The notes under the pieces were generated by a model. It saw only the letters and a program-made list of their open reading frames with translations. It was not told where the DNA came from and made no database searches. This document shows positions 19,128 to 28,622 of a stretch of DNA of 28,622 nucleotides, piece by piece. Each line of letters opens with the position of its first letter. Position 1 is the first letter of the stretch. The position numbers and the translations under genes are program-made. Source of the stretch: Bacteroidota bacterium (GTDB taxonomy: Bacteria > Bacteroidota > Bacteroidia > Bacteroidales > GCA-2748055); the NCBI GenBank assembly GCA_024244665.1, contig JAAEOI010000155.1, forward strand, positions 1 through 28,622, in the 5' to 3' direction.

Positions 19128-20549
19128 CTACATTTTTAACTTTTTCTCTATCTCGTCGACCTGAAGCCGGAACCGTTTATCTGTTTCTATCAGGTTATTC
19201 ACCGTTTTACAGGCATGCAGTACAGTAGCATGGTCCTTTCCCCCGATCTGTGACCCGATGGTGGCCAGAGAGGATTTTGTCAGGGTCTTGGAGAAGAACA
19301 TAGCTACCTGCCTGGCCTGGACAATCTCCCGCTTGCGCGTTTTGGATTGTAACAGTTCGAGGCCAATGTTGTAATAGTTGCATACCACCTTCTGTATGTA
19401 GTCGATGGAGATCTCGCGTTTGGTGCTCTTGATCAGCTTATCGATCATCTCCTTGGTAAGCTCCAGTGTGATCTCTTTCTTATTCAGGGTGGACTGTGCC
19501 AGAAGGGAGATCAGGGCTCCTTCAAGTTCCCGGATATTGTCCGAGATATGAGTGGCAATATATTCCAGGACGTCTTCCGGCAGGTCGATGCCGTCGTTGT
19601 AGGTCTTCTTCTTCAGGATGGCCATCCTGGTTTCGAAATCAGGAATCTGCAGATCGGCCGAAAGGCCCCATTTGAACCTGCTCAGAAGACGCGATTCCAT
19701 ACCCTGAAGTTCAACCGGAGGCTTGTCCGATGTGAGGATCAGTTGTTTGCCGCTCTGGTGGAGATGGTTGAATATGTGAAAGAAAGTATCCTGTGTTTTC
19801 TCCTTACCTGCGAATTCGTGCACATCATCAATAATCAGCACATCGATCATCTGGTAGAAATGGAGAAAATCATTTTTATTGTTGTTCCTGATGGCATCCA
19901 CAAATTGGGTCTGGAACTTGTTGGCGTTCACATACAGCACAGTTTTATCGGAGAAGAGCTCTTTTACCTCAATTCCTATGGCCTGCGCCAGGTGTGTTTT
20001 ACCCAATCCGCTGTCACCATAAATCAGCAGGGGATTAAACGCAGTGCCTCCGGGATTCTTTGCCACTGCGTAACCAGCTGATCTGGCAAGCCTGTTGCAT
20101 TCACCCTCAATGAAGTTATCAAACGAGTTTTCCGGATTCAGCCTTGGATCGATGTCCAGTTTCTTCAGGCCGGGAATCACGAATGGATTTTTAATTGTAT
20201 TCTCATCTGCATCAATGGGAACCGATACAGGGGTGTTTTTTATCTCTTTGCTGCTACGGGCGGGAAACTTTACAGTGTAAGGTTTGTTGTTGCTGTAGCT
20301 GTTGTTCTGCATGACTACATTATACTCCAGCTTGGCTTCCGAACCCAATTCCTTTTTAACCACCTTACGGAGAATATCTATGTATTGTTCCTCAAGGTAC
20401 TCGTAAAAGAAGGGACTGGGAACCTGGATGGTTAGCACGTCTCCATCAAGCTTTAGGGGAACAATTGGCTCAAACCAAGTGCGAAAACTTATTGAGGGAA
20501 CGTTGTCTTTTATAACACTCAGACAATTGTTCCAAATGCGATCATGCAT
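19128..20549 (-). CDS. dnaA: Chromosomal replication initiator protein DnaA
   Basis: DnaA binds origin boxes and opens the origin in its ATP form. All four domains of the 473-residue protein are visible: domain I (1-85) with IWNNCLSVIKDNVPSISFRTWF, a short linker, the AAA+ core with Walker A GDSGLGKT (178-185) and Walker B VLIIDDVH (237-244), and the DNA-binding domain with the signature DHATVLHACKTV near 443-454. The usual signature has R or K after HAC, and Lys is present. Length is typical. Neither dnaN nor recF is adjacent, which is common in Bacteroidota. It is a single gene with a strong terminator, and its 336-base upstream region may hold regulatory sites. Confidence 0.99.
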   Translation of the reverse strand: MHDRIWNNCLSVIKDNVPSISFRTWFEPIVPLKLDGDVLTIQVPSPFFYEYLEEQYIDILRKVVKKELGSEAKLEYNVVMQNNSYSNNKPYTVKFPARSSKEIKNTPVSVPIDADENTIKNPFVIPGLKKLDIDPRLNPENSFDNFIEGECNRLARSAGYAVAKNPGGTAFNPLLIYGDSGLGKTHLAQAIGIEVKELFSDKTVLYVNANKFQTQFVDAIRNNNKNDFLHFYQMIDVLIIDDVHEFAGKEKTQDTFFHIFNHLHQSGKQLILTSDKPPVELQGMESRLLSRFKWGLSADLQIPDFETRMAILKKKTYNDGIDLPEDVLEYIATHISDNIRELEGALISLLAQSTLNKKEITLELTKEMIDKLIKSTKREISIDYIQKVVCNYYNIGLELLQSKTRKREIVQARQVAMFFSKTLTKSSLATIGSQIGGKDHATVLHACKTVNNLIETDKRFRLQVDEIEKKLKM

Positions 20550-20885
20550 TACAAACGTCGATTTTAGGGTTGATTCAAATACATTTTTTGCTTGTGGGAT
20601 TCCCTAAACAAAGATTGTGAAAAAAAAGTAGAAAAAAAACTCCAAAGCGCTTGAAAATTTCATATAGGTTATATAGGTGTTAAGGTCAACCCTTTATGAA
20701 ATGAATAAATATGATAAAAATGTTAACCCATTGAAATACAGACGAATGCAGACTATTGATAGTGAAATCGATCTTAATAAATTGTATTTGAAACCTTTAG
20801 CATTTTCAATTCAATTTTTGATTCAATCAGTGTGTCAATAATGGCGGTTGGCTGGTCAATAAAAAGTGGTCAGTTATCAAAAAAA
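20550..20885. other. Non-coding region upstream of dnaA (336 bases)
   Basis: This AT-rich gap between the dnaA start and the end of mlaD is the longest non-coding stretch in the window. I see no convincing reading frame, RNA fold or exact Bacteroidota promoter in it. Visible structures are two copies of the palindrome TTGATTCAA (20570-20578 and 20818-20826), two ATATAGGT repeats 9 bases apart (20662-20669 and 20671-20678), and two A8 tracts near 20621-20640. No exact DnaA box (TTATCCACA) is present; the best partial matches, TTTTTCACA and TTATTGACA on the minus strand, each differ at one fixed base. It may hold the dnaA promoter and autoregulatory sites. An origin is possible but not supported. 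Confidence 0.5.
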
Positions 20886-27379: not shown

Positions 27380-27458
27380 AAACATCGGCTTTTTCCTCGA
27401 TCGCGGGCGATATTTTTTCTATGACTTTTAACTCATAGTTGCTATCTTAGCGGCTTCT

Positions 27459-28622
27459 ATGGACAAATATATAGTCTCTGCAAGAAAATACAGACCTTCG
27501 ACCTTTAGTGATGTGGTTGGGCAGTCCTCGATTTCCACTACTCTGAAGAACTCTATTCTTAATCATCACCTTGGACACGCCTACCTTTTCAGTGGACCCA
27601 GGGGTGTGGGGAAGACAACCTGTGCGCGGATTTTTGCCCGGACCATCAACTGTTCCAATATAACGGAAGCCGGTGAGGCATGCAACGAGTGCGAGTCATG
27701 TCTCTCTTTCAACGAGAACCGGTCCTACAGCATTCATGAACTGGATGCAGCATCCAATAATTCGGTAGATGACATCAGGATGCTCACCGAGAAGGTGCGG
27801 ATACCACCCCAGATCGGGTCTTACAGCATTTATATAATAGATGAGGTGCACATGTTGTCCCAACAGGCTTTTAATGCTTTCCTGAAGACACTTGAGGAGC
27901 CGCCTGCTCATGCGGTATTTATACTGGCCACCACCGAGAAACATAAGATCATTCCCACCATTCTCTCGAGGTGCCAGATATTTGATTTCAACCGTATCGG
28001 TGTGGAGGATGCCGTGGCTCATCTTAAGTCGATTGCTGAAAAGGAGTCTCTCGCTTACGAGGAGGATGCACTTCATGTGGTTGCACAAAAGGCTGATGGT
28101 GCCATGCGTGATGCCCTTTCCATCTTCGACCAGGTAGTTAGTTTTTCGGGCGATACCATCACCTATCAGAATGTTATCAAGAACCTTAATATCCTGGATT
28201 ACGAGTACTTCTTCAGGCTTACTTTCAGTGCCCTTGAAGGGAATGCCCCTTCCATGTTGCTCCTCTTTAACGAGGTGCTGGGAAAAGGGTTCGATGCACG
28301 AAACTTCATTAACGGGTATGCAGCCCATCTCCGCGATTTGATGGTTTGCAAGGACCCGGAGACTGTCGGTCTGATGGAAGTGGGGGCAGGGATCAGGGAA
28401 AAGTACCTCTCACAATCCAAACAGGTACCGCTTCCCTTTCTATACGAGGGTCTGGATATCTGCAACCAGGCTGATATACAGTTCAGGGCCAGCCGGAATC
28501 AGCGCCTGACCATTGAACTTGCACTTGTGAAGCTGGCTAATCTCTCAGGGGAGCAAAAAAAAAAAAAACAACTAGCCGAAGCAGCGCCTCCCCCCCCGGT
28601 AACAAAAAAAACCCCCCCGCCG
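27459..28622 (+). CDS. dnaX: DNA polymerase III subunit gamma/tau, N-terminal part (cut by the window edge)
   Basis: DnaX is the motor of the clamp loader. The visible 388 codons stay open to the edge. They show the AAA+ core with Walker A GPRGVGKTT (about 46-54), a zinc-binding module with cysteines in CNECESC (about 76-82), Walker B IIDEVHML, the sensor region LATTEKHKI and the SRC motif. The helical collar domain III runs to about residue 362 and ends RLTIELALVKLANLSGEQ. A Lys-rich then Ala/Pro-rich linker begins there, encoded partly by a run of 14 A. This is where a tau-specific C-terminal region would start. The gene is divergent from rpsF over a 143-base gap, and no promoter is convincing for it. 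The C-terminal domains are not in the window. Confidence 0.96.
   Translation, partial: MDKYIVSARKYRPSTFSDVVGQSSISTTLKNSILNHHLGHAYLFSGPRGVGKTTCARIFARTINCSNITEAGEACNECESCLSFNENRSYSIHELDAASNNSVDDIRMLTEKVRIPPQIGSYSIYIIDEVHMLSQQAFNAFLKTLEEPPAHAVFILATTEKHKIIPTILSRCQIFDFNRIGVEDAVAHLKSIAEKESLAYEEDALHVVAQKADGAMRDALSIFDQVVSFSGDTITYQNVIKNLNILDYEYFFRLTFSALEGNAPSMLLLFNEVLGKGFDARNFINGYAAHLRDLMVCKDPETVGLMEVGAGIREKYLSQSKQVPLPFLYEGLDICNQADIQFRASRNQRLTIELALVKLANLSGEQKKKKQLAEAAPPPPVTKKTPPP
28555..28575 (+). other. A14 homopolymer in dnaX with an out-of-frame TAG: candidate slippage site
   Basis: Fourteen consecutive A residues (28555-28568) follow codon 365. In the normal frame they encode Gln and four Lys, and the frame stays open. 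If the transcript had 13 or 16 A, the next codons would be AAC and TAG (28573-28575), ending the protein at about 371-372 residues, just after domain III. Nearby homopolymers are C8 (28590-28597), A8 (28604-28611) and C7 (28612-28618). No stem-loop of the E. coli dnaX type is seen after the run. Confidence 0.6.

What the first reader, a model, noticed from the sequence alone, without database searches (positions are those of the whole stretch)
28551..28622. A 14-adenine run at the core/linker boundary of dnaX could make a gamma-like short form by slippage
Seen: A14 (28555-28568) comes right after the AAA+ and collar domains. The zero frame is open and encodes a plausible Lys/Ala/Pro linker. 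Losing one A, or gaining two, puts TAG at 28573-28575 in frame, giving a protein of about 371-372 residues without tau domains. Gaining one A leaves the other frame open to the window edge. Known: Thermus thermophilus makes its short DnaX by RNA polymerase slippage on a run of nine A, and E. coli uses a ribosomal frameshift at A AAA AAG plus a stem-loop. Inference: this organism uses slippage on a longer run to set a gamma/tau ratio. A run of 14 A is hard for selection to keep unless it is used, because replication slippage would also mutate it. The cluster of long homopolymers at the window edge could also reflect sequencing or assembly error.
Basis: partly seen in the sequence, partly recalled or inferred. 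Interest (0 to 1): 0.72.

Follow-up and report, generated by a model that had tools for sequence, protein, structure and literature searches.

The report
Poly-A slippage switch in dnaX
A run of 14 adenines in a bacterial DNA-replication gene is very probably a built-in slip point that lets one gene make a long and a short protein; many relatives in the Bacteroidota keep such a run, most often of ten adenines, although the reading frame around it keeps changing.

Summary
In detail: A14 (28555-28568) follows the AAA+ and collar domains of dnaX. The zero frame stays open to the contig end; losing one A (or gaining two) gives a 371-372-residue gamma-like protein.

Of 265 non-duplicate Bacteroidota dnaX loci (window included), 170 have an A run of at least 8 at this boundary, 107 of them exactly 10. 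The first 1,020 nt of the same genes hold three A9 runs and none longer. Of 161 run loci with enough flank, the tau tail is in the zero frame in 102, needs one extra A in 49 and one fewer in 10, with at least 31 changes on a tree. I over-sampled short frames in 40 regions; all three states remain without them. In the 102 tau-in-frame genes both other frames stop within 6 codons in 81%, against 15% at control positions.

Changing direction, near stops in both other frames and weak ribosomal stimulators favour RNA-polymerase slippage over ribosomal frameshifting. The kind is known: Thermus thermophilus dnaX and the two-ORF dnaX genes of Antonov 2013. A14 is the longest run in my set, but its length is unproven at a homopolymer-rich contig end. 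No RNA or protein data were available.

The parts
27459..28622 (+). dnaX, 5' part (388 codons; contig ends before the stop): DNA polymerase III gamma/tau
   Evidence: Pfam AAA+, lid and domain III; NCBIfam NF011531 698.6 bits over cut-off 685; E. coli gamma/tau chains
28555..28568 (+). A14 run, proposed slippage site at the collar/linker boundary (codons 366-370)
   Evidence: 170 of 265 loci have a run of at least 8 A at this boundary
28573..28575 (+). TAG that ends the gamma-like form after loss of one A or gain of two
   Evidence: the same place holds TAA in L089
28569..28622 (+). start of the tau linker in the zero frame; the frame reached by +1 A is also open here (about 18 codons)
   Evidence: the TGA that closes this frame in L089 is absent in the window
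28547..28553 (+). AGGGGAG, weak Shine-Dalgarno-like purine stretch just before the run, probably not functional
   Evidence: seen by eye in the sequence; such stretches precede only a minority of runs

Best explanation
The A14 run is a programmed slippage site. RNA polymerase copying the run makes mRNAs with varying numbers of A. mRNAs with 14 (or 14 plus or minus multiples of 3) A give tau, the full clamp-loader/organiser subunit. mRNAs with 13, 16 and so on reach the TAG at 28573 and give a gamma-like 371-372-residue subunit with the AAA+ and collar domains but no tau tail. mRNAs with 12, 15 and so on read a third frame that is open to the contig end and probably stops soon after. Shown: the run, the frames, conservation of the run and of stops in both non-tau frames in relatives, interchange of zero-frame state among relatives, and selection on tails that only a frame change can express. 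Inferred: that the slip happens in transcription, that both proteins are made in this organism, and their ratio.
For: Run length peaks at 10: A8 4, A9 18, A10 107, A11 35, A12 2, A13 3, A14 1 of 265 loci, 95 below 8. Controls: the first 1,020 nt of the 265 genes (270,300 nt) hold four A8, three A9, none longer; 158,738 nt of linker and tail hold 45 A8, 5 A9, 2 A10, 1 A11. The nucleotide run, not one peptide, is kept: among 107 A10 loci it starts in codon phase 2, 1 and 0 in 52, 44 and 11. Both non-tau frames stop within 6 codons in 81.4% of 102 tau-in-frame genes, against 15.3% at control positions of the same genes; with one representative per 80%-identity cluster, 53 of 64 against 10.5 expected. 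Three zero-frame states (102/49/10 of 161) with at least 31 changes on the core tree; for example L169 (A10) and L170 (A11), 92% identical, need opposite directions. In tails behind a zero-frame stop dN is far below dS in the four pairs of nine that gave both values: 0.033/0.36, 0.092/1.26, 0.12/1.87, 0.17/1.52. Unconserved direction marks transcriptional realignment by the rule of Antonov 2013 (passages). Bacteroidia ribosomes fail to recognise Shine-Dalgarno sequences (PMC9976891, abstract and passages). No Rfam family matches at 27400-28622.
Against: No RNA, protein or raw-read data. Ninety-five of 265 loci have no run of 8 or more, so it is dispensable in parts of the phylum. Among out-of-frame genes +1 A exceeds -1 A by 49 to 10 (40 to 3 without the hand-picked regions), which a ribosomal -1 shift would also produce. 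Shine-Dalgarno-like sequence precedes the run more often than elsewhere in the gene or at the same place in runless genes (27.7% of 166 against 10.2% of windows and 6.3% of 95). Downstream folding is slightly stronger than in a control stretch (z below -2 in 14.4% against 8.1% of 160). In the window itself one of the two alternative frames lacks a near stop. PMC4320859 says that T. thermophilus dnaX also carries a translational frameshift signature, so the two mechanisms are not cleanly separable by sequence.
Confidence: 0.8

Rival explanations
1. Ribosomal frameshifting on the A run (E. coli style -1 shift) makes the short or long form, with the mRNA itself uniform.
For: Any such A run contains slippery A_AAA_AAA; +1 A states outnumber -1 A states 49 to 10; modest excess of SD-like purines and of downstream structure; Atkins 2016 mentions a Chlorobium dnaX with E. 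coli-like potential stimulators (passages).
Against: In the window a -1 ribosomal shift enters a frame open to the contig end, not one with a near stop. Stops are placed near in the other direction too (57 of 64 cluster representatives against 22.6 expected), and 10 of 161 loci need the opposite direction. SD-like strength is not higher in +1 A genes (10 of 49) than in tau-in-frame genes (30 of 99), and Bacteroidia ribosomes ignore SD. A run of 10 is longer than a heptamer needs.
Confidence: 0.13
2. The A14 count, or the end of the contig, is a sequencing or assembly error; the gene there has a run nearer 10 or 11. (Independent of the choice of mechanism.)
For: C8, A8 and C7 runs crowd the last 33 bases of a contig that ends there. 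No other of the 265 loci has more than 13 A.
Against: A14 equals the A11 of the closest relative plus one codon, so the frame is the same; loci with A12 (2) and A13 (3) exist. A smaller true count would leave the slippage reading unchanged.
Confidence: 0.3
3. A phase-variable contingency tract: DNA-level slippage switches tau on and off between cells, as in surface-protein genes.
For: Run length and frame do change between close relatives.
Against: A length peak at 10 with stops placed in both other frames suits a steady supply of two proteins; a replication gene has no obvious use for on/off switching. Tails remain under purifying selection where the genome encodes gamma. Reads are needed to exclude it.
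Confidence: 0.04
4. No function: a lysine-rich linker that happens to be AAA-rich.
For: Lysine is common there; 95 of 265 loci lack a run.
Against: Length peak at 10, three codon phases, stop placement, and absence of longer runs in the core.
Confidence: 0.03

Closest known systems
Thermus thermophilus dnaX, transcriptional slippage on A9 (Larsen 2000, seen only as described in passages of PMC1088944, PMC4320859 and PMC5009743)
   Same: Tau in the zero frame, gamma from mRNAs with altered A count; two gamma forms, the -1 stop two codons on and the -2 stop sixteen codons on, much like the window's near TAG and longer open frame
   Different: Run of nine, seven-eighths of the way along the coding sequence; here A14 at codon 366, in a gene of 573-605 codons in the closest tau-in-frame genomes, right at the end of the collar
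Two-ORF dnaX genes of Antonov et al. 2013 (PMC3711429, passages): 17 genes, 12 genera, nine with A10
   Same: Same A10 type of run, and tau made by recoding; like the 49 loci here that need one more A. Which nine species is in a supplementary figure I could not see
   Different: The window has tau in the zero frame. They report one direction only (-1); here three zero-frame states interchange among relatives
Escherichia coli dnaX -1 ribosomal frameshift
   Same: One gene, two clamp-loader proteins of the same kinds
   Different: A_AAA_AAG plus SD and stem-loop, at the ribosome (PMC3711429); gamma about 431 residues (recalled; one search lists an E. coli chain of 431) against 371 here
Long-kept frameshifts in homopolymers of insect endosymbionts, still functional through slippage (Tamas 2008, Wernegreen 2010; seen only as cited in a passage of PMC3971599)
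   Same: Genomic frame out of register, gene still under selection
   Different: There a repair of broken genes; here stops on both sides and a second product suggest a built-in use

Membership tests
T. thermophilus-type dnaX transcriptional slippage | Homopolymer A run of at least 9 in dnaX after the clamp-loader core | tested here: met
   A14
T. thermophilus-type dnaX transcriptional slippage | Tau encoded in the zero frame across the run | tested here: inconclusive
   Open to the contig end only; met in the closest relative L089, 605 codons
T. thermophilus-type dnaX transcriptional slippage | Near stops in both other frames | tested here: inconclusive
   One stop two codons after the run; the other frame open for the about 18 codons left in the contig. 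Met within 6 codons in 81.4% of 102 tau-in-frame relatives
T. thermophilus-type dnaX transcriptional slippage | mRNAs heterogeneous in A count, DNA not; gamma and tau proteins both present | not testable with these tools
   No RNA, reads or proteomics
Antonov two-ORF dnaX | Zero frame ends just after the run; tau needs a frame change | tested here: not met
   Not in the window; met in 59 of 161 resolved relatives
E. coli-type dnaX -1 ribosomal frameshift | A_AAA_AAG followed by a near stop in the -1 frame | tested here: not met
   Run followed by CAA; -1 ribosomal frame open to the contig end
E. coli-type dnaX -1 ribosomal frameshift | Functional upstream SD and downstream stem-loop | tested here: inconclusive
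   AGGGGAG upstream but the class does not use SD; no Rfam match; the window's own 54 bases downstream were not folded alone

The most novel reading that the evidence does not exclude
In much of the Bacteroidota dnaX is a frame-indifferent gene: polymerase slippage on the run spreads transcripts over all three frames so thoroughly that selection fixes the stops around the run and a length near 10, but hardly the genomic reading frame, which drifts by single-base changes (tau in frame, +1 or -1) in an essential replication gene.
Probability: 0.45. Interest if true: 0.72.

Novelty: new member of a known kind. Interest (0 to 1): 0.55.

Why it matters
If true, a core replication protein of many species in a major bacterial phylum is expressed through programmed polymerase infidelity. 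Gene callers stop at gamma wherever the genome happens to be out of frame: of the 120 best-matching database proteins, 11 besides the window are only 370-383 residues long, though at least one (P0043, named partial) may simply be cut by a contig end. The loss of the run in a clade around Bacteroides and elsewhere gives a natural test of what gamma is for. The changing direction also bears on a question that the 2013 survey settled for dnaX by likeness to T. thermophilus: polymerase or ribosome.

Tried and rejected
E. coli-like frameshift element: no Rfam match in 27400-28622; SD-like purines exceed controls but occur in a minority of loci and do not follow the frame state. My reversed anti-SD control (27.1% against 11.5%) was uninformative because the motif is nearly the same read backwards; a scrambled one gave 4.8% against 7.4%. 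Downstream RNA structure: mean z -0.49 against -0.34 in a control stretch, too weak to carry a claim. Own-genome search: no genome is held for the window. Literature searches: in the capped listings I saw no paper on dnaX slippage in Bacteroidota other than Antonov 2013 and the Atkins 2016 review; one search checked one endosymbiont paper, which only notes dnaX as present. Only openly licensed papers are held, so this is not proof of absence. Structure prediction was not run.

Sampling limits: loci are mostly the best matches of each search (80 of 590; at most 30 loci per genome search), not a random draw. Of the 40 regions fetched had a short open frame and were over-sampled by my choice. Without those regions the counts are 93 / 40 / 3 of 136 resolved. 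Dropped before counting: 5 fetched loci without a hit (other ATPase genes brought in), 11 duplicates, 6 with a cut core. Three run loci with no long frame (L123, L181, L282) and 6 with short flank, the window among them, are outside the 161. The 11 dN/dS pairs were chosen by hand as close pairs: 9 out-of-frame pairs, of which 5 gave no dS (saturated), and 2 tau-in-frame pairs, of which 1 gave none. FastTree over 265 rows with some long branches and 84 of 260 inner branches under 80 support: change counts are approximate. Stop distances are counted from the codon at the run's end and may be off by one.

Full report
What is there. The window's last gene is the 5' part of dnaX, starting at ATG 27459. 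It holds an A14 run at 28555-28568 and is cut by the contig end at 28622. Pfam and NCBIfam agree on DnaX, and comparison with solved E. coli gamma chains puts the run at about the end of collar domain III. The window is evidently a whole contig: the protein database lists this protein from a single contig of 28,622 bases.

Relatives. After dropping 5 fetched loci without a hit, 11 duplicates and 6 cut cores, 265 dnaX loci remained, the window included. A run of at least 8 A lies at the boundary in 170 of 265, with a peak at exactly 10 (107). Elsewhere in the same genes A runs fall off steeply: none in the first 1,020 nt passes 9, and three reach 10 or more in the linkers and tails. The run starts in all three codon phases and encodes EKKK, EKKN, LKKK, SKKK and other peptides, so nucleotides rather than residues are conserved. 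The set fetched around G281 has no run in 24 loci, the one around G250 has 8 in 30. Five named isolates of Bacteroides, Phocaeicola and Mediterranea that I listed have none. Three MAGs labelled Bacteroides (L003 A10, L006 A10, L007 A11) do have one, but sit apart from that clade on the tree, so their labels are doubtful.

Frames. Of 161 run loci with enough flank, tau lies in the zero frame in 102, one extra A away in 49 and one A fewer away in 10. Leaving out the 40 regions, 18 of which had short frames and were over-sampled, gives 93, 40 and 3 of 136. On a FastTree tree of the cores at least 31 changes of state are needed; pairs at 92% and 94% core identity differ in state. Named isolates with gamma in the zero frame include three Carboxylicivirga, Sunxiuqinia dokdonensis and Breznakibacter xylanolyticus DSM 6779. 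Next to the window, database proteins P0013 and P0014 (92% identical over 95% of the query) end as gamma while P0002-P0011 (551-617 residues) run on as tau.

Selection. In the 102 tau-in-frame genes both other frames stop within 6 codons in 81.4%, against 15.3% at control positions; one representative per 80% cluster gives 53 of 64 against 10.5 expected. Tails lying out of frame keep dN well below dS in the four of nine pairs where both could be computed; in the other five dS was saturated. So these tails are translated, and ending the alternative frames quickly is favoured in both directions.

Mechanism. A ribosomal -1 shift would need only one alternative frame to stop near, a fixed direction and usually stimulators. 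Here both directions are prepared, direction changes between close relatives, Bacteroidia ribosomes do not recognise SD sequences (PMC9976891, abstract and passages), and no known element is found. Antonov 2013 (passages) reasons that unconserved direction marks transcriptional realignment. Against this stand the excess of +1 A over -1 A states, a minority of SD-like stretches that is nevertheless above controls, and a slight excess of downstream structure; an insertion bias of the polymerase, or some ribosomal contribution, would explain the first. In the window the -1 ribosomal frame has no near stop, so a polymerase losing one A, or adding two, is the simplest route to gamma.

Known or new. 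T. thermophilus dnaX makes gamma by polymerase slippage on nine A (PMC1088944 and PMC4320859, passages). Antonov 2013 found 17 two-ORF dnaX genes, nine with A10, where tau needs recoding. [quoted passage not shown] The window is therefore a new member of a known kind. What I did not see described in the listings and passages is the reach across the phylum, the interchange of all three states, and the double stop placement.

What stays open: RNA evidence, the ratio of the two proteins, the true run length in this contig, and what, if anything, replaces gamma in the runless clades.

Noticed in passing
28590-28618: C8, A8 and C7 runs within the last 33 bases of the contig; the start of the closest relative's linker (L089) shows no such runs. 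Either a Pro/Lys linker or poor end sequence.
   Followed up: partly
L010, L012, L016, L020, L060, L066, L067, L073, L080, about codons 372-378 of dnaX: Bacteroides-group dnaX lacks the A run but keeps a near-identical GGGCGTAGCCCTAA (or GGGCGTGGCCCTAA) stretch near the same boundary, a small inverted repeat; could be a protein motif or a different signal.
   Followed up: partly
L123, L282: A10 run present but no frame reads beyond about 50 codons after the run start. Second frame change, assembly error or decay not told apart.
   Followed up: no
L003, L006, L007: MAGs labelled Bacteroides whose dnaX carries the run and falls outside the Bacteroides clade of the core tree; labels probably wrong.
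   Followed up: no
tails of proteins listed: Most full-length relatives listed carry Pfam entry PF28557 in the precomputed domain list; it did not appear in the scan with the Pfam copy on hand and is probably the Bacteroidota tau tail domain (inference).
   Followed up: no
20620-20639 and 20879-20885: Two A8 runs and an A7 run upstream of dnaA (19128-20549, - strand), possibly part of a replication origin.
   Followed up: no
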